From NCBI GenBank assembly GCA_002699025.1, contig PABA01000092.1, positions 1-54,571 of the forward strand: a DNA stretch of 54,571 nucleotides. Reading direction: 5' to 3'. Under the pieces are notes generated by a model. That model had not been told where the DNA came from, made no database searches, and was given only the letters and a program-made list of their open reading frames with translations. Numbering within the stretch: the stretch's first letter is position 1; each line of letters begins with the position of its first letter. Below are positions 27,164-51,702 of this stretch, piece by piece. The position numbers were made by a program, and so were the translations under genes. Source of the stretch: Sandaracinus sp. (lineage in GTDB: Bacteria > Myxococcota_A > Polyangia > Polyangiales > Houyiibacteriaceae).

Positions 27164-29869
27164 TCACTCTTCACTGTCGTCGGGAACATCTTCGGGCTGG
27201 AGGTCCTCGCCTGCGGGTTCTGGCTCGTCGCCGGTCGAGCTCTCGTCTTCACGGTCTTCGGATGCGACCGGCTGCCATGGGCGCTCCGTCTCGGCCATGA
27301 CGTCATCCCACCATTTGGGCATTGGAGGCGCGCATGCCCTTTCTACTGCCCCCGCCAGACGTTGAACCGACTTCTCCAGGCTGCCCGCCATGCGTCTGTT
27401 GATGCGATGACGAGTTAGGGCACCCCAAACCATCTCGACCCACTCCTGGTCCTCGGCGAGGCGCCGGGCTCCGCCGTGTCCCCTCTCGGCCGCGTCGACG
27501 AAGGTCTCCCAAACTCGGCGAGCGGCATCCCAGGCGGGCTGAGCGACTTCGACATCCTGAAGCACTTGCTTGAGTTGCTTCCTCAGGTCGGAATCGTGGA
27601 ACGGCCCGTCAGGATCAAGGAGCAGCTCGCGTTGGCGCTCGTAAGTCGTGTCCTTGGTCGTGAGTATCGTTCCCGCTGGCAGCATCTCGACTAGGCGGGC
27701 TGCGGCTTGGGGCTTGAGAATCTCACGTAGCGCTACGATGCAGGACTGTTGGGCTGGGTAGTCGAGTCCACCGTGGGTTCGCTGCTCCACCTCGTCCCAT
27801 AGGCGTAGCGAGAACTTGGGGGCAGCCCTGGCCATCTTCTGTAGTACAGCCCACTCCGCTTCATGGGCTGACCCATAAATTCCCCCGAAGTTGGCGAAGC
27901 GAAGCAGGCCGCCAAGCGCCATCTGGAAGAGATGTTGATCGCGCAGGCTGTCCGGCTCCATTTCTAGGAGTTTCATCCGGGCCTCCGACACGAGGACCGC
28001 TCTCCCAAGTAGTCGATCTTGCTCTGCGCGGGGAATGACATCTGCTGCCTCGGAGACAAGCAGCGCGCGGAGCTGGATGAGGGCACTCTGCATGTCCTGG
28101 GCGCTAGCACGAGCTACGTTCCCGCGAACGTCAAGCAGGTCTTGTAGTCCCGCCGCGGAGCCGATGACGTCGCGGAGGAGTCGAACGAGCTGCTGACGAG
28201 GTGATAGGCGCCCTGTCAGCAACCATTCCACATGGGAGCGGACGTCTCGAACATCGCTTCCGATGCCTTGAGCAAGTGCGTAGGCTTCTCCGCCTTCGGC
28301 TGACTCGGCCCACGGAGCATCGGGAAACGCCTTCTCCCCGCCCTCCTCCTCTTTGCCTCCGCGTGGACCGGTTACCATCTGACGAAAAGCCCCCGTCTGG
28401 AGGTCCGTCATCACAAGTTCGTTGCGAGCTACGAAGCTGAGCGACCCTTGCGCCCGAAACTCTAGGAGTAAGAGCGACAAGAGCAGAGTGGCGCTCATTC
28501 CCCCCGGGGCTTTCGTGATACTGACTGGCCACGACACCACTTGCGTGATGAAGCGTTTGCGCTCTCGCGGGGAACCCGGAAGCGCGCTTTGAAGGTCAAG
28601 GAGAGATGTCTCCAAGCTGGGTGCCCCAAGTTGCGTGAGAATCTGTCGGTCGAGTTCAGCTAGCTCAGTCGGGTGCGGCTCCGGGACACCTAGCTGGAGA
28701 TCAAAGATCTTCTGCAACAACCATTGAGCGTCGTCTTCGTCGACCTCGATGCGCGAGTCGTCAATCGCATACAAGTAGGAGATGCCCGGTGCATCAACTA
28801 CTTCGCGCGTGTCCACCAGCATGCGGAGCACAGTTGCCTTGCTGCATCTCTCTAGGTCGTCCACGAAGATGATTAGGCGACGATCTGGGCCGAGGCTCTC
28901 TCGGATACGGTCGGCGAGTTCGGCTTGACTAATTGCCAAGCGGGATTCTACGGGAAGACGGAAGCCTGAGACCCAGGAGTTTCCTCCGAGAACCCCTCTC
29001 AACCAGTCTCTCAGAACCGTGCGCTGCCTCGCGAACAAGCCAGAGTGGATGCTCTGGTGCACCAGAGCGTCATCGACCGTCGCCATGAGTGCCGAGAAGA
29101 GGTCCTCGCGGTTCTCGTGATGCCATGGGTCGAACCGTGCGAACAGATGGCCCTCCTTCTCAAGTCGCTCGCGGAGCAGGTTCGCGACGCTGGTCTTGCC
29201 CATTCCCACCTTGGCGAGCAGAGCAACCCGCGGGCAGCGAATGGTGGTACTGGTCAGGTAGGCCGCACAGCGCGTGACGAGCGCATCCCTTTGAAACAGG
29301 TCTTGGTCGATCGAAGAAATCGGCATGTCGACGTTGCCGACAGCGACCTGACGGTCATTCTCGACGGCCAGCCTGCTTGCGCCCCAGAAGGTTGCGGCGA
29401 TGACTGCCACCACGGCCGGGAACCACGACCCGCCACCGCCAACGAGTAGCAAGTAAGCGCCGAGAAAGATTGCCGCCCAGGCTAGAGCGGCGAGAGTGCG
29501 TGCGGGAGAGCGGAGGCTTCGGAGCCACGCACGAAGGCTGGGTGTCCCAACGACTACCAGGGTGGCCGCCAGTCCCAACCAGCCGGCGACGGGCACCTCC
29601 TGAGAAGCCCATGTGCATGCGCGTTGCGTCATGCTGCCTATCGACGCACGGAAGGTTGGGTGCGCACGTAGCAGCGATTGCAGGAAGACGGTAAGCCCCG
29701 CGAGGATGGCTCCCGCACGCCAACTGCGTTCGAGCACGGCCCGTGCGATCCTCACGAGTTCGCCAGCCTGCAAGGCCAGCTTGGCGCGGGTCCGGACGAC
29801 AGTAGCCTTACCGTCCGTTGCTCCGGCTTCACGCTCCTTCTCTTCGTCTGCCGGTGCTTCTGTCGTCAT
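27164..29869 (-). CDS. KAP-family P-loop NTPase with N-terminal membrane segments
   Basis: A protein of 901 residues. The N-terminal 170 residues hold up to four membrane helices (about 52-66, 95-110, 127-143, 149-164). Then comes the KAP NTPase core: LLAKVGMGKTSVANLL (Walker A, about 219-226, with Ala in place of the first Gly), FARFDPWHHENREDLF, and RRLIIFVDDLERCSKATVLR (Walker B and the KAP Asp-Asp-Leu-Glu-Arg-Cys motif). KAP NTPases are membrane-associated and several work in phage defence. The ATG overlaps the brxHI stop (ATGA), so it is the last gene of the BREX transcript. It is less GC-rich than brxHI and was probably acquired separately. It is not one of the standard type 2 BREX genes. 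Confidence 0.85.
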   Translation of the reverse strand: MTTEAPADEEKEREAGATDGKATVVRTRAKLALQAGELVRIARAVLERSWRAGAILAGLTVFLQSLLRAHPTFRASIGSMTQRACTWASQEVPVAGWLGLAATLVVVGTPSLRAWLRSLRSPARTLAALAWAAIFLGAYLLLVGGGGSWFPAVVAVIAATFWGASRLAVENDRQVAVGNVDMPISSIDQDLFQRDALVTRCAAYLTSTTIRCPRVALLAKVGMGKTSVANLLRERLEKEGHLFARFDPWHHENREDLFSALMATVDDALVHQSIHSGLFARQRTVLRDWLRGVLGGNSWVSGFRLPVESRLAISQAELADRIRESLGPDRRLIIFVDDLERCSKATVLRMLVDTREVVDAPGISYLYAIDDSRIEVDEDDAQWLLQKIFDLQLGVPEPHPTELAELDRQILTQLGAPSLETSLLDLQSALPGSPRERKRFITQVVSWPVSITKAPGGMSATLLLSLLLLEFRAQGSLSFVARNELVMTDLQTGAFRQMVTGPRGGKEEEGGEKAFPDAPWAESAEGGEAYALAQGIGSDVRDVRSHVEWLLTGRLSPRQQLVRLLRDVIGSAAGLQDLLDVRGNVARASAQDMQSALIQLRALLVSEAADVIPRAEQDRLLGRAVLVSEARMKLLEMEPDSLRDQHLFQMALGGLLRFANFGGIYGSAHEAEWAVLQKMARAAPKFSLRLWDEVEQRTHGGLDYPAQQSCIVALREILKPQAAARLVEMLPAGTILTTKDTTYERQRELLLDPDGPFHDSDLRKQLKQVLQDVEVAQPAWDAARRVWETFVDAAERGHGGARRLAEDQEWVEMVWGALTRHRINRRMAGSLEKSVQRLAGAVERACAPPMPKWWDDVMAETERPWQPVASEDREDESSTGDEPEPAGEDLQPEDVPDDSEE

Positions 29870-32535
29870 TCGACGGGCCGGTTGTCAGAGAACGTACTCC
29901 TGAGCCGCCACAGCACTTCGACATCGAGCGCCGCGTACTCCACCTGGGCGGAGTCGAGAGGCCGCCGTCGCCAGTCCGACGTCTGGCACCGCTTGTCGAT
30001 CACCAGATCGAGCTCCCGCCGCACGACGGCGAGCAGGCTGTGCCCCGCTGCGAGGGGTCCGTACTTTCGGCGCGACACGGTCAGCGTGTCGTAGATGTTC
30101 TCGATGCCGATGCCGAGCTTGCCGAGGACGGTCTTCTCGAACTGGGCGTTGTGGATGACCTTCTCGACCTTGTCGGACTCGAGGACGGCGGCGAGGGGGG
30201 CGAGGTCGCCGACGGTGAAGGGGTCGATGAGGTAGTTGGTCTCGGGGGTGCCGACCTGAGCGAGGCAGAGGCTCTGGTCGGTCAGGGTGGTCTCGACGTC
30301 GAGGGCGATGAAGGGCTCGGCGTGGAGCTTGTCGGCGATGGCGGCGAGCTCGTCGGGGCTGCGGACCCACTGGATGGGGTTCCGGGGCTTGGCGTACTCG
30401 AACTTGGTCGCGGTTTCGTCGACGTGGGGGTCGAGGCCGAGGATGACGCGGGCGGTGGCGAGGTCGACGGTCTTCCGGACGAGGAGGTCTCTCGCGAGGT
30501 GGTCCGGGAGGCAGGGCTGGAACTTGGAGACGCGGCTCTTGGTGGCGTCGGGGGCGAAGCGGAGGGCGTCGCTCCACGTGGGGCTGTCGGCCTCGCGGAG
30601 CTTCTCCATCGCTTGCTTGATGGCGACGAGGCTCTTGCCGCCGTCCTTGGTGAAGGTGAGCGAGGTGTTGCGGCTGATGACGCGGCCGCCCACTTCGCGC
30701 TCGAGGAGGCGGGCTAGGAGGAGGTTCGCGGCGCCCCCGGCGAAGTTGTGCCACGTGATCTGCTCGTCGTTGTCGTGGACGAACTCGTCGCCGTCGCGGA
30801 GGAAGTAGAACTCGGCGCGGAGCTGGGCGATGACCTTCTCAGCGCGCGCGGACCACTCGGTGTCCACCTCGTCGTCGAGGAGGATGTCGCGCATGGTTTG
30901 GCAGAGCTCGTAGCTGAGGTGCCGCGGGCTACCCGACCAGCGGGCGGCCTTGCCGGAGTCGGCGGGCTTCACGACGCATCGCCCTCGTCGCCAATCGATG
31001 TCGAGGACGAGCCAGTTGCGGCCGCCGAGGGTGAACGAGCTGGGCTCGTCGTCCTCCTCGAGGGATGCGAGGAAGGTTGCGTCGATGGTGCCGATCTCCT
31101 GGCTGGCGTGCCGGACGGTGATGAGCCGCGGCGCCTCGAAGACCGCGTAGAGGGCGCGGAAGTTGGCGCGGCCGTAGCTCTTCTCGCCCTTCTCCCCGAG
31201 CCACAGGCGCCCTTCGTGGTCCGTGAGGATGTCCTTGTGGAGCATGTGGTCGAGGAGGGTCTGTCGCTCCTCGTAGGTGAGGTCCTCGAAGGGAGCGGCG
31301 CCCTCGAGCCAGCCCCACCAGTCTTCACGCCCTACGCCGCCGGACTGAACGGCGAGCGACATGATCTGGTGAGCAAGGATGTGGCTTGCGCGGCGCGAGG
31401 GGCGAACGGGCTCCACGAAGCCGCGTTGGCGAAGGCGCTCGATGGCGGCTGCCTGGAGGAGGCGCTGGTCCCGGGTCGTCAGGAACGTGCAGTTGGCCGG
31501 CCCCATCTCGGCGCGCCGACCGGTGCGTCCCATGCGCTGGAGGTAACTGGCGACCGACGGTGGAGCGTCGATCTGGAGGACGTGGTGGAGGTCACCGACG
31601 TCGATGCCGAGCTCGAGCGCGCTGGTGGCGACGATGACGCAGTTCTCGCCCTGGGCGAATGCGGTCTCGGCGTCCCGGCGGGCCGTGACGGAGAGCGAGC
31701 CGTGCGAGACGAAGGCCATCACGCCGAGCTCGAGGAGCTTGGCGCCCAGCTCTTCTGCGCCGCGGCGGGAGTCGACGAAGACGAGGCGCTTCTTGCCCCG
31801 GTGCATCGCTTCGATGACCTGAGCGGCGTTCTCGACCGTGGCGACGTAGTCCAGCCTCACGACCGGCTCTACCTTGGCGCCCCCGGGATCGATGACGCGG
31901 CCCAGTCGCTCGGAGCCTCCGCGCAGCCAAGTGAGGATCTCGCCGGGGTTCCCGACGGTGGCCGAGAGGCCGATGCGCTGGACCTCGCGCCCGGCGAACC
32001 TTGAGAGCCGCTCGAGCACCGAGGCCAGATGCGCGCCTCGGTCGTCGTCGGCGAAGGCGTGGACCTCGTCGATGACCACGGCCCGTAGGCCGGTGAAGAG
32101 CTCCCGCGCCGAGACGCGAGGGCTCATCATCATCGCCTCGAGCGACTCGGGCGTGGTGAGCAGGAAGTCCGTCGGCTCGGCGAGGAAGGTCTTCCGTGCG
32201 CTGTCTCCGACGTCGCCGTGCCACTTGAACGCGCGGCGGCCGAGGAGCCCCGCGTAGCGCTGGACGCGGTCCTCCTGGTTGTTGAGGAGGGCGCGAATGG
32301 GCGAGAGGTAGAGGACGGAAACAGGGGTCCAGTCCTCATCGTTCATCCGCGAGAGCAGCGGGAAGAAGGCGGCCTCGGTCTTTCCACCCGCCGTGGGAGC
32401 GAGGACCACGCAGTCGTCGCCCTCGAGGATGGCCTCGATGGTCTGTTCCTGGACGGGGCGGAGGCTCGAGAACCCGAGGGTGTTGACGATTTGGTACTGG
32501 AGCGCGCCGCTCAGCCGGTCGAATCCCCCCGCCAT
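29866..32535 (-). CDS. brxHI: BREX type 2 helicase BrxHI with a 3'-5' exonuclease domain
   Basis: A protein of 889 residues from ATG 32535, 4 nt after the brxD stop; the longer open frame upstream is a shadow of brxD. Superfamily 2, Lhr-like helicase: Q-motif region RPVQEQTIEAIL, Walker A LAPTAGGKTEAA (about 45-55), DEVH box (VVIDEVHAFADDDRG), motif VI QRMGRTGRRAEMG. The last 150 residues form an RNase D-like DEDD exonuclease: FIALDVETTLTD, VIHNAQFEKTVLG, QVEYAALDVEVLW. The usual second Asp position in the HNAQFE block is Gln, which I note as a possible difference. In BREX-2 this helicase is needed or supportive for phage exclusion; it probably remodels or degrades invading DNA intermediates. 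Confidence 0.9.
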   Translation of the reverse strand: MAGGFDRLSGALQYQIVNTLGFSSLRPVQEQTIEAILEGDDCVVLAPTAGGKTEAAFFPLLSRMNDEDWTPVSVLYLSPIRALLNNQEDRVQRYAGLLGRRAFKWHGDVGDSARKTFLAEPTDFLLTTPESLEAMMMSPRVSARELFTGLRAVVIDEVHAFADDDRGAHLASVLERLSRFAGREVQRIGLSATVGNPGEILTWLRGGSERLGRVIDPGGAKVEPVVRLDYVATVENAAQVIEAMHRGKKRLVFVDSRRGAEELGAKLLELGVMAFVSHGSLSVTARRDAETAFAQGENCVIVATSALELGIDVGDLHHVLQIDAPPSVASYLQRMGRTGRRAEMGPANCTFLTTRDQRLLQAAAIERLRQRGFVEPVRPSRRASHILAHQIMSLAVQSGGVGREDWWGWLEGAAPFEDLTYEERQTLLDHMLHKDILTDHEGRLWLGEKGEKSYGRANFRALYAVFEAPRLITVRHASQEIGTIDATFLASLEEDDEPSSFTLGGRNWLVLDIDWRRGRCVVKPADSGKAARWSGSPRHLSYELCQTMRDILLDDEVDTEWSARAEKVIAQLRAEFYFLRDGDEFVHDNDEQITWHNFAGGAANLLLARLLEREVGGRVISRNTSLTFTKDGGKSLVAIKQAMEKLREADSPTWSDALRFAPDATKSRVSKFQPCLPDHLARDLLVRKTVDLATARVILGLDPHVDETATKFEYAKPRNPIQWVRSPDELAAIADKLHAEPFIALDVETTLTDQSLCLAQVGTPETNYLIDPFTVGDLAPLAAVLESDKVEKVIHNAQFEKTVLGKLGIGIENIYDTLTVSRRKYGPLAAGHSLLAVVRRELDLVIDKRCQTSDWRRRPLDSAQVEYAALDVEVLWRLRSTFSDNRPVE

Positions 32536-33922: not shown

Positions 33923-34429
33923 CTAGCGTTTCGGCGCCGTCTGGGGAGGCTGTAGTGTCCGCTTCGCCCACCGAAGCAGAGGGCCATCGTACAGGTGCCA
34001 CTGGCTCGACGTGGGCTCGAACTGCAGCGCAAGCACCCGCTCCGGCTCCGAGCTACCTTTCGCAGCGCCCAACGCGCCTCCGACCAGCATTCCCAGCAGA
34101 AGGCCGCCTAGCAGCCCTTCCTTCGTGTTCTGCGCCGCGCCGATGGCAGTTCCGACGACTGCTCCCAGGGCTGCCCCGTCCGCTGCCCCCGACGTTGTCG
34201 CCGCGGCTGGGCCAGCGAGCCGAAAGCGGGCGACCCCTTGGTCCGGAAAGACCTGAACATCGATCTTCCGCCGACCCGTCTGCACGAGGAAGCGGTTGGG
34301 GTGCTCGAGGACCCTTGCATCCAGGCCGTGTGCCCGCAGCTCTTCCACGTCATCGACGAAGGCATCTAGAGCCTCAAACCGACCCCGATGCTCCTCAAGC
34401 ACTGACGCGATGTCGCCTAGAGAGGGCAT
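33923..34429 (-). CDS. Glycine-zipper membrane protein, partner of the RelA/SpoT-like gene
   Basis: A protein of 168 residues starting 9 nt after the RelA/SpoT-like stop (AGGA 7 nt before the ATG). Residues 1-75 form a soluble alpha/beta domain (GDIASVLEEHRGRFEALDAF, then RRKIDVQVFPDQGVARFRL). Residues about 81-124 are two glycine-zipper helices (AALGAVVGTAIGAAQ and LLGGLLLGMLVGGALGAAKG) that would form a membrane hairpin. Residues 130-168 are again soluble. No named family. Its place directly after the nucleotidyltransferase gene suggests a two-gene unit, either effector and membrane partner or toxin and neutraliser. It is not a known BREX gene. Confidence 0.75.
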   Translation of the reverse strand: MPSLGDIASVLEEHRGRFEALDAFVDDVEELRAHGLDARVLEHPNRFLVQTGRRKIDVQVFPDQGVARFRLAGPAAATTSGAADGAALGAVVGTAIGAAQNTKEGLLGGLLLGMLVGGALGAAKGSSEPERVLALQFEPTSSQWHLYDGPLLRWAKRTLQPPQTAPKR

Positions 34430-41200: not shown

Positions 41201-41940
41201 AGGCCCGAGTCCAGGTCGAGAAACTGCCGCTTCGTCTCCGCGTATGCCTTGAACCGGGTCTTCACGAGCGCGCTGAAGAGCTCCTCACGCACCTTCGGAT
41301 CGCTCGACTCGGTCGCCGCGTCGAAACGCTCCCGGTCCCAGCCGCGCTTGGCGAACTTGCGCCATTTCGCCTGCTTGCTGGAGCCGCCCCCGGCCAGCTC
41401 GTTCATCGGCCCGAAGAAGGCATCGTCGCCGAGCTCCTCGAGCATCTGCCTCGCGTCTGCGAAGAGCTGCTCGTCAGCGAAGAGGCCGGGAACCGTCGCC
41501 TCGTCGTGGTGCTCGCGGACATGGGCGATGTACCGGAGGAAGATGGCCTCCTCGATGCTCTCGTGTCCCACCATGTGGAAGTGGAGCTTCAGCAGCTTCT
41601 TTTCGCCCACCCAGTCAAACGGGGCGCGAAGCGGGTGGAGCTCCGGGATGCGCCAGACGTCTTCGTTGGCGTCGAGCATCAGTGACAGCAGCGCCATGAA
41701 GTGCGACTTGCCGCTCCCGAAGCTGCCGTGAAGGAAGGTGGCCTGGCTTCGGTTCTGTTGCAGCGACGTGTCGACGAGCTTGAGCGCCTTCTCGAAGGCG
41801 TCGCGGATTGGCGGGGTGACGACGTAGGTCGACGCGGTCTGCTTCGGCTGCTCGATCGCCTGGCTGAGGACCTCGACGAAGCCGATCTTGTGGATGCTCT
41901 CCGGCAGGTCGAAGAGCGGCTTCACGCGCTGCTCGCTCAT
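38263..41940 (-). CDS. pglY: BREX type 2 ATPase PglY
   Basis: A protein of 1225 residues. The start [20 protein letters not shown] and FLHGSFGSGKSHFMALLSLM (Walker A, 72-79) are characteristic of PglY, the BrxC-type P-loop ATPase of type 2 BREX. Walker B is DGIVLFLDELILWLAS (Asp267-Glu268). A cysteine cluster CSNCERTAC around residues 525-535 may bind zinc. The C-terminal third has long helices. Its ATG overlaps the pglX stop (ATGA), and its stop overlaps pglZ. It likely assembles with PglX and PglZ into the DNA-bound BREX complex. The length is normal and no motif appears damaged. Confidence 0.93.
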   Translation of the reverse strand: MSEQRVKPLFDLPESIHKIGFVEVLSQAIEQPKQTASTYVVTPPIRDAFEKALKLVDTSLQQNRSQATFLHGSFGSGKSHFMALLSLMLDANEDVWRIPELHPLRAPFDWVGEKKLLKLHFHMVGHESIEEAIFLRYIAHVREHHDEATVPGLFADEQLFADARQMLEELGDDAFFGPMNELAGGGSSKQAKWRKFAKRGWDRERFDAATESSDPKVREELFSALVKTRFKAYAETKRQFLDLDSGLGIVGRHAKELGYDGIVLFLDELILWLASRASNVEWFHNEVQKMVKLVEAQESHRDIPFVSFIARQRDLAEMVGEDYMGLENKLVRDSLQWSEGRYETITLEDRNLPAIAEKRVLKPASDEAKATLDQAFDKMRKGAADPAWKTMLGHLDAADFRRLYPFSPALVEALVALSNSLQRERTAIKLLTEILVEHIEDLSLGGVVGVGDLYDVLAGGEDTADGVMKSRFESAKQMYTYRFLPVLQEQHETNTPEKCQRLRPDHPARLGCSNCERTACRTDNRMVKTLIIASLVPEVSALKDMTAAKLVQLNHGSLRVPIPGTEANLVAQKLRNWASQIGQLHVGSQADPTVRLQLEGVELEPILEQARHVDGPGARQRVLRDLLFEAMGVESIADWGRDHKYKDWRGTDRLGHIRFGNVRKMGPEALRCPEGHDWRLIVDYPFDEPNFGPHHDEEVLEKFKEETGGSWTLVWLPSFFSHSINQMLGELVILDHILESASVTKGYVSHLSVENQVRAQNDLANLRTQKQSRILQALGQAYGLTQPKEGDLDTGQSVENHLVVLKPGAKVQTSLAANLATALDSYIPALLEARYPRHPRFTKKLTTARQKNLIARFGDIIDSDEKRIPADKNLGEEMRGTLGELGLVRVTETAVHLLQDQTLQELEKKRQQKSAERPEVGEVRRWIDESGRMGLQPEALDLVVRCYARWSARTFVSGDQAFAPVAGKPIPDYIVLEKPDLPTHQDWLAAKQLAGTAFGLPNMGNALHADNLKRFESELAKMLKAKVADCTKLPGLLKQRLGQLDLDTDVDRVTTAESADAMCAGLQGKNGKAQVEFLAGFEAKTSARAVGASIGSAAQVANVLDDALVFGAFDQLKGRQTELEGVTELLDKVSGVLRQDELNQAAADRLRGLAEEAQRILNPPPPPGRVVFEGSLHRQGKAEVIAHLESALAKVRETLEGEGDEVTMTGQIRITAPGNKGPGKK

Positions 41941-44900
41941 TGGTCAGCCTTCTTGCTCTTCTTCGAGGACTTTTTACGGCCTCGCTTCGTCTTCTCCGGC
42001 GGGCGCCATGCTTTCAGGTCGTCGTGCGTCAGGCCGAGGGCCTGGCACTCGCCGTCGACGAAGCTCCGATAGTACTCGGCCGGCGAGACGCCCCCGTAGT
42101 CCTCGGACGGTTTGTCGTGCCAGAGCTCGAGCCAGAACTGGAGTTCGAGGAGCCCGGCGAGCATCGGGGTCAGGCGGTCCCGTTCCCAGCCCTCGTTGGT
42201 CTTGCGGTCGTAGTAGAGCGTGGCGAGGGCCTTGGCGCGCTGCTGATGGTCCAGCCCTGCCCAGCAGTACGCCGCCTTTCGGTCTTCGTCGGACTCGCAG
42301 CCCGGGTAGGAGACGAAGCGCTCTCTCGGAACGTCGAGCTTGCCGCGCAGCCGCCAGGTACTCCCCGAGCGCATGTCCTTGGGCGAGTACTTCGGCGTTC
42401 GGGGGGTGGCGGACCGGCCCTCGGCCTGGCTCCGCCAGAGCGCCTCCCACTCACGCCGCTTCTCGAGGCCCTTTCCGGTGTAGCGGTGGGCAGCTAGGAA
42501 GGGCGCAGCCTGTGTAGCCAGCACCTCCGCGATCTGGAGTCCGCCGAACTGCTCAGCCAGCTCCAGAAGCTCGACCACCCGACTGTCCTCGCGAAGCCTC
42601 CGCTCCACGTCCGATTCGCTGAGAACGAGTGATTGCTCCCCCGCTAGTTCCGCTTCGGCTGCTTGCTCAAGAACCAATCGGAGGGCCGCGGCGATCTCGG
42701 CGTCGTAGTCAGTCGCGCGCCACCAACGCTTGAAGTCAGGCCGCTCGACGGCCGCGAGCAGGTCTGATCCGCCTATGGCAGCAATGCGCTGTGCCTGGAG
42801 CCTTCCCGGACGCACGCCATCTGGGGGGCTCGCTCCGGTGCGTTCAAACCACGTTGCGTCTGGTCCCTCACCCATGGTCCGCTGCCACAAGAGATGCTCA
42901 AACGTCCGTCGCCCAGCGATATCATCGGCACTCGGGCCCGGCGCGAGCCCATCGTCGCAGAGGCCGAAGAGCCGATAGCACGTCCAATCGACGCACTCTT
43001 GGAGCCGAACGAGCTCCGAGAAGGCTGCCGCCTCGTCTTGCCGAGCTGTGTTGAGGACCTCCGCAAGTGGCCCGTCGAGCTCGCCCGCGAACCAACGCTC
43101 AGCGACACGCGCAGGCGTCGCAGCGTCGCGACATTCTGCGGCTTGCAGAAGGGCAGAACCCAAGTTGGCCAGAACCTCCCACCCCTCGGGGAGGGGCATA
43201 GGAAGAAGCGCGCGCCCAGCAAACTGGTAGCGGTCAGCCCAAGTGGTCGCCGATAGCCTGCCACCGTCACCCATCTGGTCGCCACCCATTGGATAGGAAA
43301 CCTGCTTCATCCAGAAGCAGGAGATGGAGCTGTTCAAGAAGCAGGACAGGGCAGCGTACTGGTCTTCTGAGCAGCCAGGCGGCAGCTTTATTACTGGAGC
43401 CGACTGGTTGAAGACCCGCTGGCCCCGGTCCACGACGAAGTGATTTCGGCTTGACACGAAGGCATAGGCGATGCTGGTAGGCACACTTCGTTTCGACTTG
43501 TAAAAACTCCGGTACTCAAACCACTCAAGCCCCGCCTCGAGGGTTGTCTTGCCGAACTGTCTTCGCCTCTCGAGCACTGTCTTGTAACGCCAGAAGTGCC
43601 GCCGGGTGGGCTCGTGTTCCGGAAGGGCGGGCTCGAGAAAATCGTCATATGGAAAAAGTACTGACGCCGAGTGGCGAATGTTCCAGTTTCGGACATTCTC
43701 GCCAATCCCAAGCATTCGAGTGTACTTGGGTGGTACACCGAGTCGCGCAAGCCAGTCGGGGGGACCGTAGTACAGGTCGTCCTCGCCCATGATCGCGTCG
43801 AAACCGATGGCGGTCGCCAGATCGCCCAGCGACTCTCGCGCCTCGGCCTCGATATGGGCCTTGAGTTCTAGTGCGCCCCCTCCGCTCAAGCTCCACGGGT
43901 GCGCCGCAAGAAGTTCGCGGTCGCAGTCTGCGACGGACACGAACTCATCGACGTAGCCCGGAGATGACCAGTGTTCCACGATGCTCGACCAGACCAACCC
44001 GCGCGACGGATCGACGGGCTCCGCGGGTTCGCCCCCCTCCGACAAGACCAATCGCACCGTTGCGCTGCGAGGGGGCTCATTGCTGCCGAACATCATCAGC
44101 GTCGGCGTGCCGTGGCCAGGAATGTAGGCTCCCGCGGTACTCACGAGCAGCTCGAGGTTCACCGTCGACAGAAATGATTCAATCAAGCTCTTTCCGAACT
44201 CTCTCTTCATGAAGGAGTTCGCAGTAATCTGCCCAACTAGACCGCCGGGTCTCGCGAGATGAAAGAAGCGCTCACAGAAGGGCGCCGACAGCGCGTATTT
44301 ACCGGAGGCGCTAACGTAGAGCTCGCGATACCGGTCACGGAGAACCCGGTCCTTTGGCGTAATGTAGGGAGGGTTTCCGACGACGGCAGCACACCGGCGG
44401 TGAAGCACTTGCCGTGCCTGCGCCTCTTCCTCCAGTGCGAAGACCTTCCGATCCCAGTCAACAACCCGAGCGTCGCTCTGATGGAACAGGGCGCCCTGCT
44501 CGTGCTGCGGGTTGTACAGGAGCGAGTCGGCGACCGCGACGTGGAGTGGAAGCTTCGGAGCCGCGCTGATCTTGTCGAACGCTGCCTTGCCCAGGAACGA
44601 GAGCGTGAGCCGGAACTTGGCGATCGCGACCGCGAAGGGGTTGATGTCGGCGCCATACACCTTGTCGAGCGCCTCGGCCGCCGCCTCCCGAGCGCTCAGC
44701 CCAGGCTTCGCGCGCTGCACGTGCTCGAAGAAGCGGTCGAACGCGCCGAGCAGGAAGTGCCCGCTGCCGCAGGTCGGATCGATGAGGTCGGCGTCGTCGA
44801 GGCCGAACTTCTCGATCGCCGGCTCGAGCGTTCGGTCGAGGATGAACGCCTCGATGAAGTCCGGCGTCTGGAGCAGCGCGTAGCGCTTGCGGACGTTCTC

Positions 44901-45512
44901 GTTGAGGTCCTGGTAGAGGTCGCCGAGGAAGCGGGTGTCGCTGACGCCGAAGCGAAAGGCGGGCTCATCCGTACTCGGTGAACGAAAGAGCGTGAGGAGC
45001 TCTTTCGCCGCTGCGGCGCTCGGCGCCAGCAGCCAGACCGGGTTGTGCTCGGGCCCGAAGAGATCCTTGGCCGCCGGGTACTGGGACAGTTCCCGGAAGA
45101 CCGTCAGCAGGTAGTCGCGCTCGGTGAGCGATGGCGCGAGCTCGAAGAACAGTCGCTGGGTGTCGGCGGCGCCGGGGCCGGCGATGCGGTTCCGCTCGAG
45201 GAGCTCGCGATCCTCGAGGGCGCGGGCAAAGACACACGAGAGCAGCCAGGCCGCGCTCACCTGTTCGATGAAGCGCTTCTGCCACTGCACGAACCCATCG
45301 GCGGTCCGCTCGGCCGCCTTCTCCTCGGTGTGCCGCGCCTTCAGCGTCGCCGTGACCGCGGGCGATTCCTTCGCGCGCTTGAGCAGGTCCGCGTCGAGCT
45401 TCTTCAACACCGGCTGGGCGGCGGAGAGGAAGAGCGCGCTGTCGAGCGGCGCGGTCGGGTCCGACTGACCGGGGAGGTCGGCGAGCTTCGGCTTCTTGCG
45501 TCGTCGTGCCAT
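41937..45512 (-). CDS. pglX: BREX type 2 adenine-specific DNA methyltransferase PglX
   Basis: A protein of 1191 residues from ATG 45512; the upstream open frame overlaps the preceding gene and is rejected. N-terminal helical domain, then the gamma-class N6-adenine methyltransferase: [17 protein letters not shown] (motif I, about 245) and [15 protein letters not shown] (catalytic Asn-Pro-Pro-Tyr, about 380). The region about residues 440-800 (43200-44200) is the target-recognition part; by eye it is clearly less GC-rich (near 52% in one sampled 60-bp line) than the flanks, as expected for an exchanged specificity module. The C-terminus ends in a Lys-rich tail ([18 protein letters not shown]). 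It marks host DNA at a non-palindromic site and takes part in phage exclusion. Confidence 0.93.
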
Positions 45513-45520
45513 CGTTCTGC

Positions 45521-46474
45521 TCAGTGCGTGAGTAGCTCGAACGCGCTGTCGAGGGCCCTGTCCGAGAGCTGCTGAGTCAGGAAGTCGTGGGTTAGCTGGG
45601 GGTCCGGCTCGTGGCGCTCGGCTTCGACCCATGTCACCCAGGTCTCGAAGTCGCTGGGTTTATCGACCGTCATGAAGCCGACTCCATGCTTGCGGGCGGC
45701 CTTCACACACTCGACAAAGCGAAGGTCTTGGTGTGGGTCCTCATGAAGTGACGGGGGAAGCACGACGAGAGCGTACGGACGCGTTGCGAAGCGCGCGTGC
45801 GCCAGCGCCTCATGCACTACTGTGATGTCCCAGCTATCCGGAGGCTTCACCTCGAACGTCCACACGTCGAAGTAGTTGCCGGGAAGCAGGTCAAACTGTC
45901 TCAGCGAGAACACCGTGATGTCTGGTCGAGACCAGATTCCCCCGGTGTCTTTGCTGCCCTGCCACGCGGTTACATCGACAACGCTCTGGTCGAGATTGTT
46001 CTCCTTGACCCAGTGACGGACCAGCGTGCGGCGAAGTGGTTCGTAGTACTTGGACTCGGCCGACTCGATCGACGGTGACGCGACGAGTTTGGCGCGGCCC
46101 GCCAAACGGAGCGTTCCGCCGCGTCCTGGGCCAACCTGGATCAGGCCAAAGTCTCGGGCACGGCGCTGGGCTTCCCAATAACGATCGACGTCGTCGTCCC
46201 ACCCGAGTTCTTTCTGGAGCCACGGATTCGTGACGGTTCTGTTAGCCGGCATAGTCTCGATGAGGGCACGGACATCAGCGTCAAGACGACGGACGCTCCC
46301 TCCTTTGCCCCGTCCGACCGCGAGGATGCCCTTGGCGAGGAGCTTCTCGCGGGCCTTCAGGTAGCGGTCTTTCTTCCAGCTCAGTGCTCTCTGAATGGAG
46401 ATGTTCCCCCGAGCCCCGGAATCGGGAACCTCAGCGAGGAGCTTCTTCTCGTCTCTTGAGAGTCGACTGGCCAT
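45521..46474 (-). CDS. Double winged-helix/PD-(D/E)XK protein within the BREX operon
   Basis: A protein of 317 residues from ATG 46474, 8 nt after the pglW stop and ending 8 nt before pglX. Residues 1-64 and 65-125 look like two similar winged-helix units, each ending in a Gly-rich wing (VGRGKGGSVRRL and VGPGRGGTLRL). Residues about 138-290 have a restriction-endonuclease-like core: ESKYYEPLRRTL (Glu140/Glu145), RPDITVFSL (Asp185) and FDVWTFEVKPPDSWD (Glu208-x-Lys210), then HEALAHARFA. The set is what an active PD-(D/E)XK nuclease needs. It could be a sequence-specific nuclease, or a regulator that senses DNA. It is not one of the standard BREX-2 genes. Confidence 0.78.
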   Translation of the reverse strand: MASRLSRDEKKLLAEVPDSGARGNISIQRALSWKKDRYLKAREKLLAKGILAVGRGKGGSVRRLDADVRALIETMPANRTVTNPWLQKELGWDDDVDRYWEAQRRARDFGLIQVGPGRGGTLRLAGRAKLVASPSIESAESKYYEPLRRTLVRHWVKENNLDQSVVDVTAWQGSKDTGGIWSRPDITVFSLRQFDLLPGNYFDVWTFEVKPPDSWDITVVHEALAHARFATRPYALVVLPPSLHEDPHQDLRFVECVKAARKHGVGFMTVDKPSDFETWVTWVEAERHEPDPQLTHDFLTQQLSDRALDSAFELLTH

Positions 46475-46482
46475 GGCGATTC

Positions 46483-49400
46483 CTACGCAGCGGCGTTGTG
46501 GCGGTTGGCGAGCCACTCGAGCGGGACCCAGAGCGCCTGCGACGGATGCAGGCCGGGGATCGATAGCTCGCCGTTGATGCGGGGGATGCCGCCCGTGTCG
46601 TGTCCCGGGACGAGCAGCAGGATGGGTGCCTCGGCGGACTTGGCGGACTCGACGAGGCGCTCGAGGAACGAGTCGAGGTGGTATCGGGCGATGAGCCCAG
46701 GCTGGACGAGGAGCAGCGGCTCCTTGGGGGGGAGCAGCTCTTCGGCGATCGATTCCGCGGCCGCCTCGACGAGGTTCAGCAGGTTCGGCCAGTCCTCTCC
46801 CTGGCGGCCACCGAGGTCTGCTTCGTGGACGATCGTGTCCTCCTCGATGCCGGCCTCGGCGAGCTGCTCCCGGATGGCTTCGACGAGGAGCCGATCGAAG
46901 GGCACGGGTTCCACGTCGAGTCGGCGTCCGAGGGCCAGGGCAGCTTCTCGCGCTCGATCGGCTCGGACGCCGAGAACCCGCAGGTGATGCCGCTCGACGG
47001 CGTTGCGAAGCCGCTCGTCGAACCGACGAGCGATGACCGCCTCGGGCTCCATCGAGAGCGCCTGGGACGGCAGTGCCGTCATCGAGCGCCCGAGCGAGGA
47101 GACTCGAGTGTGGAAGCTGGTCTTCTCGAGCGCGCCCTGACGCTCGTAGGCTTGCTTCGTCTCGTTCCAGGTGAGGCCGTGCCGGAAAAGCAGAGCGTCG
47201 AGCTCCGGCCGGGTCGGGAGGGCGGCCGCCTCCGGGTAGCGGAGGGACACCCGGCGCAAGACTTCCTGCGGGCCGATCCCGCTTCTGAGCAGCGAGGCGC
47301 TCAACGAGAGCGCCCGCTCGGGCGACATGCCGCGCGGGTAGATCTCGAGGCGGGTGGAGCGGGCCGCGCCCTCACTGGCGAGCGCCGCGATCTCGGCCAG
47401 GCGCTGAGACGACACGTTGGCGAGGGGGGTGTCGGCGGCGGTGTCGGTGAGCACCCGCTCGGTCTCTCCCTTTCCGGCGAGTACCGGCCGCGCAGCGAGC
47501 GCATCGGCCGCCTCGCCGAGCGCCTTCACCGCGCGGGTGTGGGCATCCGAGGCGCAGAGCCACGGCTGGTCGGCGCCGAGGCGGATGTACTGGAGACCGT
47601 CGCCTTCGACCTTGTCGACCTCGACGACGATACGGAGCAGCGCCGCCGCGCGGGCCGCGAGGAGCTCGTCGGCGGCGGTCCGATCGTGTGGGATGTGGGC
47701 GAGCAGGTGCCGGGCTGCATGGTCGAGGGGCAGCGCCCCGCTGGCGGCGTCGACCACGGCGTGCGCTTCCTTGCGAAGCTCGCTGATGGCGCCGTGCTTG
47801 GCCCACTCGTCGCGGGCCTTGCCGAGGGCGATGTAGATGGCCGCGGTCGTCACGCCCTGGTCATCCGCGAGATCCTTCACGGCGACGCCGAGGCGCCCCG
47901 CGAACGTCCCCTCGATGCCGTAGAGGAGGCGTGGATGCTTCATGCGCCGCTTGCGCTTCGGCATGAGCGCGTCGAGCCAGCCCTCGATGGTCGAGGGGCG
48001 CTCACGCTCGTTGGCGTTGCGGTTCTCGGCGTCGAGCAGCTCGCGGAGCGGACGCTCGTCGAAGTCGTGGCGTTTGGCGAGCGCGCGAATCTGGTGCTTC
48101 GGTGCCGCCGCGACGACCGCCAGGCTCCTGAGCCCCGCGTCGCGAAGGGCGGTGGCGACCTCCTCCTCGATGCCGGCCGTGTGGACGAGGATGTCGTCCC
48201 CTCGGTACCCAGGGAATAAAGGCTTGGGTGCGACCGGCGTGAGCTCTCGTGCGGCGCGCCAGCGGTCGCGGAAGCCGAGGATCTCCTGCGCGACTCGACG
48301 ACCGATGCCGCGGATGGCCGAGAGGCGGTTGTCCGGGAGGTCGAGTAGATCCTCGGCGCGAAGCAGACCGGCTCGGTCGAGGGCGTTCTTCGCTCGAGGC
48401 GAGAGAGGCAGCGCCTCGATGAGTGTCTCGGGGCCGATGGCGCCGAGCTGCTCTTCGGTCAGCTCTTCGTCGGCCTCGGGGTGCTCGCTCGGCGTGGCTT
48501 GCGCCGCGGCGCGAGCCGGCGCCGCCAGGGCGGTCACCCAAGCGCGGCGCATCTCCTCGGCGGAGACGAAGCGCTGCTCGGTGTCACGTGCCAGCGCCCG
48601 CTCGAAGAAGGCGACCAGCGAGTCCCGCACCGACGGGTCGAAACGCTCCGCGGCGAGCACGAGCTTCGAGTCCGCGTCGATGGCGACCCCCTCGAAGATG
48701 GGGCGCACGCCGGTGAGCATCTCGTGCAGCGTGATGGCCGCGCTCCAGCGCTCGGCGGCGTTGTCCCAGGAGCCGCGCAGGTCGAGGAACGGATCGCGGT
48801 AGGCCGCGGTCCCGACCTTGAGGTCGGAGCGGCTCGACGCCGCGAGCGAGAAGTCGAACAGCGTCAGATGCGCCCGCGTCTTGCTCACACTGCCGACGCC
48901 GAGGTTCGCCGGCTTGATGTCGCGGTGCATGACCTGGTGCTCTTCGAGGTACTCGACCGCGGAGAGGAGGTCGTCGCCGTAGCGCTCGGCGAGCTCGAGG
49001 GACACGGTGCCCTCCCGGGCGAGGTGACGGTGGAGCGTCTCACCGCCAGCCACCGAGAGCAGGAGACAGGTGCGGCCCGCGAACTCGTACCGCTCGACGA
49101 GCTGCACGATGCGCGGATGCCGGAGCTTGGCCAGCGCATCGGCCTCGGCGGCGAGCCGCTCGTCGTGGTCGTTCGAGAGGGTGACCTTGAGGGCGTAGTG
49201 GCGGCCGTCCGAGACGCGGCCGACCAGGAGCACGCGAGAGGTGGCGCCCTGGCCGAGGACCCCGTCGACGAGGAGGTCGTCGCCGAGGTTGTCGCCCTTG
49301 CGGGCCTCGAGGGGATCGGTCTCTGGCTCCGTGGCCTTGGGCTCGGGCTTGGTGATCTCGGCGAGCACGAGCTCGAGCCACTCGTCGACATCGTCGGCAC

Positions 49401-50796
49401 GAGAGATGGGGCTCAGCTCGGTCGCGAACGCGATGAGGTTCGCGAGGTCCTCCTGCATCCCGTCGTCGACCGCGCGGGGGTCGAGGTGGTGCTCGTCGTG
49501 GAGGCGGCGGGCTACGGCGACGTAGTCCTCACCGGGCGGCTCGCCCGTGAAGACATAGTAGGCGAGGGCTCCGAGGCTGAAGACATCGGACTGCGGAGTG
49601 CGCGCGGTCGGGTCCTGGCGTAGCTCCGGCGCCTGGTAGACCGCCCAGGGCTCGGACGCGAGCGCGGACCAGTGGGTGGTCGCCTCCACCTCGGTGCCGA
49701 CGCCGAGCTGGAAGTTGAACAGCCGCGTCTCGATGCTCTGGTCGTCGGGCTTGCGGCGGACGAGGACCGCCTCGGGGCTCAGCGCGCCGTGGACGACCTG
49801 CTTGCGGTGACAGAACGCGAGCGCCCGCCCGACCTGCTCCACGATGGCCACCCGGTCCATGAAGGGGAGCTTCGGGTTCTGTCGGAGGAAGGTGGACAGC
49901 GGCACCCCGCCGTCGAAGGAGTCGAAGAGGACGGTCGGACCCAGCGGGGCGTCCGTCTCGTAGCCCGCGACGCGGAGGATGTTCGGGTGCTCCCGCACGT
50001 CCCAAAGGAGCTGACTCTCGCGGTCGGCAGCGCGGAGGAGCTGCTGGCGGCGCTCGACGCTCGTCTGCTGGGGGACGAGGTAGGTGCGCGCGCGGCAGGT
50101 GATGGTCTTCTGCTTGCGGTGGGCGGCGAGACGGTCCTGGTAGCCGGGGCCGTCCTCGAGGATCTCGCCCAGCTCGTAGGCCCCCGCGTGAGCCTTTCCC
50201 TTCCGTGGGCGGAGGCCGAGCGCCTTCATGGCCGCGGCGACCTGGCGAGCGGCCGGGGCAGAGATGCGGCGGCGATGCCGAGAGGTGTCGGCGCCCGGGA
50301 AGTCGTGGTGCTGGACGGCGCGGACGAAGTTGTCCCGGGTGACGACGCCGACGTCACCGTGGTTCTTGAAGCGCAGCTCGATGTTCTCGGCGCTCAAGAA
50401 GACGAGGGGCTCGACCCAAGGGGTCAGGCGCCTGTCTTTCATCTTCGAGCGCAGGCGGGAGGCGAGGACCTTCGACTTGTGGTTGGTCAGCCGGTACGGG
50501 TTCTCCATATACCGGGAGCGCTCATCGTCCGGGTCGATGCGGTACCAGTCCTGGTAGTCGCCCTCGTAGATACCGGGGCCGCTCTTGATCTCGACGAGGT
50601 AGAGGGCCGAGTAGCCGAGGACGAGCAGGTCGAGCTCGTAGAGGCGCCCCGTCGACGGGTCGAGCAGCTCGAGCAGCGCCCACAGGTGGTACGGGTCGTT
50701 GTTCGGCAGTGCCTTGATTGCGAAGTCGATCGCCTCTCGCTCGTGCGCGTAGGGCGTTTCTCCCTGGAAGACGATGCGCGAGGTGGCGAGCGTCAT
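46483..50796 (-). CDS. pglW: BREX type 2 serine/threonine kinase PglW
   Basis: A protein of 1437 residues from ATG 50796, overlapping the preceding stop (ATGA). Residues about 10-165 are a NERD nuclease-related domain (YELDLLVLG, Asp56; LYLVEIKSG, Glu69/Lys71). Residues about 235-480 are a first kinase-like domain without catalytic residues (VVHGALSPEAVLV in place of HRD, RLFNFQLG in place of DFG), so a pseudokinase. Residues about 505-770 are a second, probably active kinase: GQGATS loop, Lys537, Glu551, VMHRDIKPANLGV, DFS in place of DFG, GTAAYRDPF. Helix-hairpin-helix segments follow (LPDNRLSAIRGIGRRVAQEIL), then a long helical region and a PglW-type C-terminus. It phosphorylates and controls other Pgl proteins. 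Confidence 0.93.
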   Translation of the reverse strand: MTLATSRIVFQGETPYAHEREAIDFAIKALPNNDPYHLWALLELLDPSTGRLYELDLLVLGYSALYLVEIKSGPGIYEGDYQDWYRIDPDDERSRYMENPYRLTNHKSKVLASRLRSKMKDRRLTPWVEPLVFLSAENIELRFKNHGDVGVVTRDNFVRAVQHHDFPGADTSRHRRRISAPAARQVAAAMKALGLRPRKGKAHAGAYELGEILEDGPGYQDRLAAHRKQKTITCRARTYLVPQQTSVERRQQLLRAADRESQLLWDVREHPNILRVAGYETDAPLGPTVLFDSFDGGVPLSTFLRQNPKLPFMDRVAIVEQVGRALAFCHRKQVVHGALSPEAVLVRRKPDDQSIETRLFNFQLGVGTEVEATTHWSALASEPWAVYQAPELRQDPTARTPQSDVFSLGALAYYVFTGEPPGEDYVAVARRLHDEHHLDPRAVDDGMQEDLANLIAFATELSPISRADDVDEWLELVLAEITKPEPKATEPETDPLEARKGDNLGDDLLVDGVLGQGATSRVLLVGRVSDGRHYALKVTLSNDHDERLAAEADALAKLRHPRIVQLVERYEFAGRTCLLLSVAGGETLHRHLAREGTVSLELAERYGDDLLSAVEYLEEHQVMHRDIKPANLGVGSVSKTRAHLTLFDFSLAASSRSDLKVGTAAYRDPFLDLRGSWDNAAERWSAAITLHEMLTGVRPIFEGVAIDADSKLVLAAERFDPSVRDSLVAFFERALARDTEQRFVSAEEMRRAWVTALAAPARAAAQATPSEHPEADEELTEEQLGAIGPETLIEALPLSPRAKNALDRAGLLRAEDLLDLPDNRLSAIRGIGRRVAQEILGFRDRWRAARELTPVAPKPLFPGYRGDDILVHTAGIEEEVATALRDAGLRSLAVVAAAPKHQIRALAKRHDFDERPLRELLDAENRNANERERPSTIEGWLDALMPKRKRRMKHPRLLYGIEGTFAGRLGVAVKDLADDQGVTTAAIYIALGKARDEWAKHGAISELRKEAHAVVDAASGALPLDHAARHLLAHIPHDRTAADELLAARAAALLRIVVEVDKVEGDGLQYIRLGADQPWLCASDAHTRAVKALGEAADALAARPVLAGKGETERVLTDTAADTPLANVSSQRLAEIAALASEGAARSTRLEIYPRGMSPERALSLSASLLRSGIGPQEVLRRVSLRYPEAAALPTRPELDALLFRHGLTWNETKQAYERQGALEKTSFHTRVSSLGRSMTALPSQALSMEPEAVIARRFDERLRNAVERHHLRVLGVRADRAREAALALGRRLDVEPVPFDRLLVEAIREQLAEAGIEEDTIVHEADLGGRQGEDWPNLLNLVEAAAESIAEELLPPKEPLLLVQPGLIARYHLDSFLERLVESAKSAEAPILLLVPGHDTGGIPRINGELSIPGLHPSQALWVPLEWLANRHNAAA

Positions 50797-51482
50797 GCCT
50801 TGGCGAGCTCCCGCGCATTCGCGGCGTCTTCGTCGGTGGCGTCGTCGGAGAGCAACAGCCGCGCGCCCGGCTTCGCGGTGGCCAGCTCGGCGGTGAAGAT
50901 GCGCGCCGGCTTGGTGGCGTTGAGCAGCGCGCCGGCGTGCGCGGCGAGCTGGCGGTGGGCCGGAGGTGTCGCGACCACGGTCACCTGGTCGATCCAGTCC
51001 AGGTCGGAGCCTTCGTGGAAAGCCACGATGGCAGCGGCGATGGCGCTCGGTCCGGCGACGACGAGCTTCTCGGCCGCGCCGATGGTGCCTGGATCGAACG
51101 GCGTGAGGTTCAGGTCCCAGGCGGCAGCGGTGGCCTCGAGGGTCTGGCGAGGAGAGGCAGGTGACTCGGCCTGAGCTCGAGCACGCCACATCTCCTCGGC
51201 CTCGACCGGGTCGAGCGGCTCCCAGTCGGCCCCGAAGGGCTCGTCCTCGGCGACGGCGCGCTTGGCGAACACGGTCCTGGCGCCGAAGGCCGCGGGCCAC
51301 TGCGCGTCCGCGTCGCGGATGAGGAGATCGATACGGTCCGCAGTCGTGAGGTCGCCCTTGAACGAGGACCAGCGTGCGTCCGCCTCGGCGCCGAACCGGC
51401 GCCCGGTGGGCTGTCGTCCTTCGATGTAGGCCAGGGCGCTGAGCGCCGCCTCGTAGTAGGCCCGTGCTTGCCCACTTTCCAT
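50793..51482 (-). CDS. Unknown 229 aa protein, first gene of the BREX operon
   Basis: From ATG 51482 with an excellent GGGGGAG 5 nt upstream; the longer open frame upstream is not used. The N-terminal half is helical (ARAYYEAALSALAYIEGRQP, ALFIK-type helices, DADAQWPAAFGAR). Residues about 135-229 read like a small alternating alpha/beta domain (AAEKLVVAGPSAIAAAIVAF, then DWIDQVTVVATPPAHRQLA, then GARLLLSDD). No family recognised. Its stop overlaps the pglW ATG (ATGA), so the two proteins are probably made together. As the leading gene it may be a regulator or a PglW partner; this is inference. It is not among the six named BREX-2 genes. Confidence 0.75.
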   Translation of the reverse strand: MESGQARAYYEAALSALAYIEGRQPTGRRFGAEADARWSSFKGDLTTADRIDLLIRDADAQWPAAFGARTVFAKRAVAEDEPFGADWEPLDPVEAEEMWRARAQAESPASPRQTLEATAAAWDLNLTPFDPGTIGAAEKLVVAGPSAIAAAIVAFHEGSDLDWIDQVTVVATPPAHRQLAAHAGALLNATKPARIFTAELATAKPGARLLLSDDATDEDAANARELAKA

Positions 51483-51702
51483 GCGTTCTCCCCCTTGTAG
51501 AGAGCCTGGGGATCTATCACACGTGGGACGGTTCTCGCGATCGCGAACTGACGGAGCCTCGCGACCATCGGTTGCCTGCGTCGGCAAGGCGGGCGGCTCA
51601 AGGGTTGCGTGTCCATGATGGGCGGAGATCGCAGGGCGCTCGGACCCCGGTTCGCTAGGATCCGGCGGAGGCGGGACCGTATCGTCCCGGAAGGAGTGAG
51701 AC
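51483..51702. promoter_or_regulatory. Divergent promoter region of the BREX operon, with a palindrome
   Basis: 220 bp between the minus-strand BREX operon and the plus-strand gene at 51703; it must contain both promoters. A perfect 12-bp palindrome TCGCGATCGCGA lies at 51535-51546. On the minus strand it sits just upstream of TGATAGAT (51513-51520), a possible -10 box, so a repressor bound there could control the operon. No convincing -35 box was found. Confidence 0.45.

What the first reader, a model, noticed from the sequence alone, without database searches (positions are those of the whole stretch)
45521..46474. Winged-helix/PD-(D/E)XK protein placed between pglW and pglX
Two winged-helix units followed by a nuclease-like core with Asp185, Glu208 and Lys210. 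It is coupled by 8-nt gaps on both sides. BREX is thought to block phage without degrading DNA, so a co-expressed nuclease with DNA-reading domains next to the methyltransferase would be a new activity (for example cutting unmodified sites, or a methylation-sensing regulator).
Basis: partly seen in the sequence, partly recalled or inferred. Interest (0 to 1): 0.66.

Follow-up and report, generated by a model that had tools for sequence, protein, structure and literature searches.

The report
DNA-cutting accessory protein inside BREX operon
Between two core genes of a bacterial anti-phage (BREX type 2) operon sits a gene for a predicted DNA-cutting enzyme with two DNA-binding domains; it is real and its active site looks intact, but it is an add-on borrowed from a widespread, unnamed family of mostly stand-alone genes, and add-on nucleases in BREX are already known.

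Summary
Minus-strand gene 46474-45521 (317 aa) sits between pglW and pglX of a complete BREX-2 operon with 8-nt gaps on both sides. Structure prediction gives two winged helices (a tandem duplication) and a PD-(D/E)XK domain; solved-structure matches to that domain are overwhelmingly PD-(D/E)XK enzymes, PaqCI first. D185, E208 and K210 are invariant in 24 homologues. No Pfam, NCBIfam or PADLOC model covers it.

A 2026 survey already reports auxiliary PD-(D/E)XK nucleases throughout BREX, so the activity is not a new kind. Homologues span six phyla, mostly solitary one-winged-helix genes at housekeeping loci with no methyltransferase found nearby, which argues against cutting unmodified PglX sites. 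Against the sister system the nuclease is 89.5% identical while PglX is 55%, so it does not track PglX specificity. Still, recruitment to BREX-2 is recurrent: intact between pglW and pglX in two genera, a decayed copy after brxHI in a third system, a nuclease-less four-winged-helix relative in a fourth. The pglW-pglX junction is a cassette site, occupied in 8 of 19 loci, often by other nucleases.

Most likely it is an auxiliary, conditionally active DNase effector. Cleavage is untested.

The parts
45521..46474 (-). Gene for the two-winged-helix PD-(D/E)XK protein (317 aa)
46283..46468 (-). Winged helix 1 (residues 3-64)
   Evidence: AlphaFold2 secondary structure; VIA-align matches to BlaI/MecI at residues 1-65
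46100..46282 (-). Winged helix 2 (residues 65-125), a tandem copy of the first; absent in nearly all solitary homologues
   Evidence: MarR/SarZ matches Z 10-12; repeat score; one-winged-helix homologues
45524..46057 (-). PD-(D/E)XK nuclease domain (residues 140-317)
   Evidence: AlphaFold2 of the domain alone, pLDDT 90.3; PaqCI Z 11.2, rmsd 3.5 over 149 residues, then almost only PD-(D/E)XK chains
45920..45922 (-). Codon of D185 (PD motif)
   Evidence: invariant in 24 homologues; position checked
45845..45853 (-). Codons of E208-V209-K210 (EXK motif)
   Evidence: E and K invariant in 24 homologues
46483..50796 (-). pglW (ORF can be read from GTG 51300, but the sister gene begins at the residue matching 50796)
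   Evidence: NCBIfam NF033442 1030 bits over cut-off 990; start from alignment with G187
41937..45512 (-). pglX, BREX-2 adenine methyltransferase
   Evidence: NCBIfam NF033451 1138 bits
38263..41940 (-). pglY (BrxC-type ATPase)
   Evidence: PADLOC BrxC 1175 bits
35456..38266 (-). pglZ
   Evidence: NCBIfam NF033446 471 bits
32540..33895 (-). brxD
   Evidence: Pfam PF10923 2.8e-134
29866..32535 (-). brxHI helicase
   Evidence: Pfam DEAD, Helicase_C, WH_Lhr; start from alignment with G187

Best explanation
The gene encodes an auxiliary DNase effector that was inserted into this BREX-2 operon and is co-expressed with it. The two winged helices hold DNA and the PD-(D/E)XK domain cuts it with metal ions. 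Because relatives live as solitary genes without a protecting methyltransferase, the enzyme is probably conditional: active on a feature that marks invading DNA (a modified base, an unusual structure, or a nicked or replicating state), or only when engaged by the BREX complex, in the manner of a type IV or back-up restriction enzyme. Shown here: gene, operon position, domain architecture by prediction, intact and invariant active-site residues, purifying selection, repeated recruitment to BREX-2. Inferred: DNA cleavage, the trigger, and the contribution to phage defence.
For: Position and spacing and the same position in a second genus (L006/L059). Predicted fold with PaqCI, MspJI, AspBHI, Can2, NucC, FokI and others as matches. 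Invariant E140, D185, E208, K210. Low dN/dS. A decayed relative directly after brxHI in the BREX-2 operon of G732 and a four-winged-helix relative between brxD and brxHI in G736. The pglW-pglX junction elsewhere holds Septu PtuAB, two Schlafen AlbA_2 proteins, a PDDEXK_2 nuclease and a YhcG nuclease. The same winged helix heads HsdM, Mod, GmrS-like, AIPR-like, TIR-like and helicase-nuclease proteins. Literature precedent for auxiliary nucleases in BREX (PMC12839542).
Against: Most of the family is not in BREX and sits beside housekeeping genes, so its role may be older than and unrelated to BREX. Only 2 of 21 BREX-2 genomes in the phylum sample have it, so BREX-2 works without it. No activity, expression or interaction data. 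The trigger is unknown.
Confidence: 0.52

Rival explanations
1. It is a DNA-binding regulator or adaptor of the BREX operon (like BrxR, or a tether that brings the complex to DNA) and nuclease activity is minor or absent.
For: Two winged helices; a nuclease-less four-winged-helix relative sits in the BREX-2 operon of G736, so the DNA-binding part alone can be recruited; winged helices match MarR/BlaI repressors.
Against: D185, E208 and K210 are invariant across 24 homologues and the nuclease domain is the best conserved part between the two BREX copies (97% for residues 181-300 against 82-87% for the winged helices). Position is in the middle of the operon, not at its head.
Confidence: 0.2
2. 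It is a solitary DNA-maintenance nuclease that hitch-hikes in the operon and has nothing to do with BREX function.
For: Relatives next to aspS, recQ, ribonucleotide reductase, pyruvate dehydrogenase and other housekeeping genes; patchy distribution (9 of 349 genomes in one sampled phylum, several of them winged-helix-only matches).
Against: 8-nt coupling on both sides, retention beside a swapped pglX, and at least two independent arrivals in BREX-2 operons.
Confidence: 0.17
3. It is the cognate restriction partner of PglX and cuts PglX sites that lack methylation, turning BREX-2 into a classical restriction-modification pair.
For: Placed directly before pglX; a distant relative lies 19 nt behind a DrmMI/type IIG-like methyltransferase in Novosphingobium (L057).
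Against: Between the two BREX copies PglX diverges to 23-35% in C-terminal stretches while this protein stays 89.5% identical; most relatives have no methyltransferase detected nearby.
Confidence: 0.08

Closest known systems
Auxiliary PD-(D/E)XK REases of BREX (Rakesh and Krishnan 2026, PMC12839542), including HARE-HTH-REase fusions
   Same: Nuclease of the same superfamily embedded in the BREX core locus, with DNA-binding helix-turn-helix modules; proposed back-up effector
   Different: Winged helix not matched by Pfam HARE-HTH; two tandem copies; whether this exact family is in their supplementary tables could not be read here
BrxU / GmrSD-type IV enzyme accompanying type 1 BREX
   Same: Works like: an extra nuclease in a BREX locus that needs no cognate methyltransferase (proposed)
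   Different: Different nuclease fold (HNH/ParB), different BREX type; modification dependence is not shown for this protein
PaqCI (type IIS restriction endonuclease, 8epx/8em1)
   Same: Best structural match of the nuclease domain (Z 11.2, rmsd 3.5, 149 residues, 8% identity)
   Different: No detectable sequence kinship; PaqCI is a site-specific enzyme of a classical restriction-modification system with its own recognition part (own knowledge)
NERD domain of PglW
   Same: Nuclease-type domain of the PD-(D/E)XK clan already inside BREX-2 (PMC12839542)
   Different: Fused to kinases, a core component; separate family
Septu, Schlafen-type, YhcG and PDDEXK_2 cassettes at the pglW-pglX junction of other BREX-2 loci
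   Same: Same insertion site, same class of accessory effector
   Different: Unrelated proteins

Membership tests
PD-(D/E)XK nuclease superfamily | alpha-beta-beta-beta-alpha-beta core | tested here: met
   AlphaFold2 of the domain and fold comparison dominated by PD-(D/E)XK chains
PD-(D/E)XK nuclease superfamily | acidic residue before core strand 2 and (D/E)XK at the end of strand 3, conserved | tested here: met
   D185 at the start of strand 186-193, E208/K210 at the end of strand 200-210, invariant in 24
PD-(D/E)XK nuclease superfamily | metal-dependent cleavage of nucleic acid | not testable with these tools
   needs purified protein
BREX type 2 core component | present in most BREX-2 loci | tested here: not met
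   2 of 21 phylum genomes with BREX-2 pglX
Auxiliary nuclease of BREX | nuclease gene flanked on both sides by BREX core genes in one operon | tested here: met
   pglW, 8 nt, gene, 8 nt, pglX; same order in L006/L059
Auxiliary nuclease of BREX | adds to phage restriction | not testable with these tools
   needs phage assays
Type II restriction enzyme paired with PglX | shares the methyltransferase's target and co-varies with it | tested here: inconclusive
   no co-variation in the one available pair; target not known
Type IV (modification-dependent) restriction enzyme | no cognate methyltransferase needed; cuts modified DNA | tested here: inconclusive
   solitary relatives without nearby methyltransferase by similarity to eight reference proteins; cutting of modified DNA untested
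HARE-HTH | match to the HARE-HTH profile | tested here: inconclusive
   no HARE-HTH match in Pfam at E up to 1 for four members; more distant kinship not excluded
PADLOC/NCBIfam named defence families | profile match over cut-off | tested here: not met
   no match; one sub-threshold hit in one of 24 homologues

The most novel reading that the evidence does not exclude
The winged helix shared by this nuclease, type I and III methyltransferases, GmrS-like, AIPR-like, TIR-like and helicase-nuclease proteins, and the four-winged-helix BREX-2 protein of G736, is a common reader of one feature of invading DNA; BREX-2 systems recruit it repeatedly, with or without the nuclease, as a plug-in sensor that licenses cutting independently of PglX specificity.
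Probability: 0.12. Interest if true: 0.72.

Novelty: new member of a known kind. Interest (0 to 1): 0.4.

Why it matters
It adds an unnamed nuclease family, absent from the Pfam, NCBIfam and PADLOC copies searched, to the accessory layer of BREX-2, and shows that the pglW-pglX junction is a recurrent docking site for accessory nucleases and other defence cassettes. That gives a direct test of whether BREX-2 gains a cutting step from add-on effectors, and whether such an effector follows PglX specificity or acts on its own cue.

Tried and rejected
Profile libraries: the only sub-threshold Pfam hit for the protein (Peripla_BP_3, E 0.18) is chance. PHROGs and the phage collection: no meaningful hit. 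Viral contigs: 21 pattern matches, none a relative. PDB by sequence: nothing. Foldseek on the whole model lists mostly winged-helix proteins because that part dominates; the nuclease domain was therefore predicted and searched alone. Foldseek TM-scores for the nuclease domain are low (about 0.25-0.45 for the relevant rows), so the fold call rests on the consistent VIA-align list, secondary-structure order and motifs. 'pglW' hits near the solitary copies L120 and L122 are short matches to the kinase region and were not counted as BREX. Tree of the nuclease domain: deep branches unresolved, no clear sister outside the two BREX copies. Supplementary tables of PMC12839542 could not be read (no look-ups allowed), so whether this family is already listed there is open. 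L056 was left out of the junction count because pglX there is preceded by an htpG-like ORF (my reading of the sequence), not pglW.

Full report
Observation. The gene is on the minus strand, ATG 46474 to stop 45521, 317 aa. The pglW stop codon ends at 46483 and the pglX ATG is at 45512, so the gaps are 8 nt on both sides. The operon is a complete BREX type 2: pglW (NF033442, 1030 bits), this gene, pglX (NF033451, 1138 bits), pglY, pglZ (NF033446, 471 bits), a RelA/SpoT-like gene, a 168-aa gene, brxD and brxHI. Residues D185, E208 and K210 are as stated.

Fold. AlphaFold2 with 24 homologues gives pLDDT 87.6: two winged helices (about 3-64 and 65-125) and an alpha/beta domain in PD-(D/E)XK order, with D185 at the start of the second core strand and E208/K210 at the end of the third. 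The two winged helices are copies of each other (alignment score 86; shuffles 23.7, SD 4.7). The nuclease domain alone gives pLDDT 90.3, pTM 0.88. VIA-align ranks PaqCI first (Z 11.2, rmsd 3.5, 149 residues), then SPO1766 (Z 8.8); below that Z drops to 7.7 and less, but the rows are almost all PD-(D/E)XK proteins (Can2, Cdn1, MspJI, BsmI, AF2093, EcoT38I, AspBHI, FokI, NgoMIV, NucC, McrBC, Hjc, BamHI; superfamily membership of these entries from own knowledge). Foldseek alone is weak (one hit below 0.001), so the fold call rests on agreement of motifs, element order and the VIA list.

Family. Pfam, NCBIfam, PADLOC and PHROGs have no model for it. A scan of 84,980 species genomes found 23 loci in Myxococcota, Pseudomonadota, Acidobacteriota, Planctomycetota, Bacteroidota and Fermentibacterota. 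E140, Y144, G179, W181, P184, D185, T187, E208, K210, E222, G264 and G266 are invariant over 24 rows. Nearly all relatives have one winged helix, not two; the N-terminal part is variable: the G870 protein has two, and two genomes of family f15 carry an extra Cro/C1-like HTH by my reading of the sequence. Most lie singly near housekeeping genes: aspS, recQ, ribonucleotide reductase, pyruvate dehydrogenase, an Mrp-type ATPase, gamma-glutamyltranspeptidase. A comparison of about 0.5 Mb around 32 relatives with eight methyltransferase or restriction proteins found a methyltransferase near only one, a type ISP enzyme (L077). Loci with a defence context are L077, L064 (HSDR_N protein next door) and the distant L057 (19 nt behind a DrmMI/type IIG-like methyltransferase, with a LmuB-like gene nearby).

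Link to BREX-2. In an even sample of 282 genomes of the phylum, 21 have BREX-2 pglX over the cut-off and two have this gene: the window's genome and G187 (the same contig as MAG HCUG1432-5, L059), in the identical place. A deeper class search (317 genomes) added two things. In G732, whose operon is pglW-pglX-pglY-pglZ-brxD-(987 aa)-brxHI, a relative follows brxHI but has lost its middle by an internal deletion with a frame change. In G736, a 407-aa protein made of four winged helices of this type, without nuclease, sits between brxD and brxHI. So the module has entered BREX-2 operons apparently three times, at three positions. A random gene landing within a roughly ten-gene operon of a genome with thousands of genes is rare (rough estimate, not computed), though defence genes cluster, so this shows association rather than function.

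The junction. In 19 BREX-2 loci where pglW and pglX are both in reach (window included), 8 have something between them: this gene (2), Septu PtuA/PtuB on the other strand (L040), two Schlafen AlbA_2 proteins (L042), a PDDEXK_2 nuclease (L049), a YhcG PDDEXK nuclease (L052), an unknown 626-aa protein (L051) and short repeated ORFs (L047); 11 have nothing. Junctions were read from ORF ends because divergent pglW C-termini do not align.

Evolution. Against G187 the nuclease is 89.5% identical (dN 0.069, dS 1.195), pglW 90%, pglY 89%, but pglX only 55%, with 23-35% in several C-terminal stretches where the recognition part is expected. The nuclease therefore stayed while the methyltransferase changed. 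This is one pair, but it speaks against a restriction enzyme that reads PglX's own site. Within the protein the nuclease part is the most conserved (97% for residues 181-300, 82-87% for the winged helices), which speaks for a working catalytic domain.

Literature. PMC12839542 reports PD-(D/E)XK REases, stand-alone or fused to HARE-HTH and other modules, as the most prevalent auxiliary effectors in BREX and related systems, and proposes that they back up PglZ. PMC12205998 reports, by its title, that type 1 PglZ is a metal-dependent nuclease.

Mechanism. The best-supported account is an auxiliary DNase effector. That relatives survive as solitary genes suggests they are harmless to unmarked host DNA, hence conditional: modification-dependent, structure-dependent or switched on by partners. 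This step is inference. Rivals are a DNA tether/regulator, an unrelated passenger, and a cognate type II partner of PglX.

Verdict. The finding is real, the nuclease reading is well supported structurally, and it is a new member of a known kind. What is new is an unnamed family, its repeated recruitment to BREX-2 and the description here of the pglW-pglX junction as a cassette site; one search for papers on insertion hotspots in BREX showed none whose title or abstract states the last point, but subscription literature and the supplementary tables were not searched.

Noticed in passing
window 34439-35443 (-) and 33923-34429 (-): A RelA/SpoT-type nucleotide pyrophosphokinase (334 aa, PF04607 3.5e-11; PDB kin are small alarmone synthetases) sits between pglZ and brxD, followed by a 168-aa protein with a weak glycine-zipper match. 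The RelA-like gene is kept in G187 at the same place at only 61% identity beside 89-95% for its neighbours, and the 168-aa gene is not found there. It could be an alarmone-making toxin or effector inside BREX-2.
   Followed up: partly
L040, L042, L047, L049, L051, L052, L006 and window, pglW-pglX junction: The junction is a cassette site for defence genes (Septu, Schlafen AlbA_2, YhcG, PDDEXK_2, this nuclease): 8 of 19 loci occupied.
   Followed up: partly
L128 4849-6072 (+): 407-aa protein of four tandem winged helices, same type as here but without a nuclease, between brxD and brxHI of a BREX-2 operon.
   Followed up: partly
L126 about 8138-8660 (-): Remnant of a winged-helix PD-(D/E)XK gene with an internal deletion, directly after brxHI in another BREX-2 operon.
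   Followed up: yes
L093, L095, L097, L007, L098, L127, L129, L130, L131: The same winged helix is attached to a DUF4011 helicase with MTES_1575 nuclease (profile) and, by my reading of the sequences, to type III Mod, HsdM, GmrS-like DUF262, TIR-like, coiled-coil and AIPR-like proteins: a shared DNA-reading module of restriction and defence proteins.
   Followed up: partly
L006 13365-15445 (+): G187 carries an OLD-type ATPase plus DUF4276 pair (PADLOC HEC-01A/B) between pglX and pglY, a second cassette site.
   Followed up: no
window 50793-51767 (-): A 324-aa ORF overlaps the likely pglW start by a few bases and has a counterpart upstream of pglW in G187 (L006 3510-4502); the long pglW ORF from 51300 is probably over-extended.
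   Followed up: partly
window 45521-46516: Third-position GC of this ORF is 0.73 against 0.87-0.91 for pglW, pglY and pglZ (pglX 0.78; RelA-like gene 0.70), in line with later acquisition.
   Followed up: no
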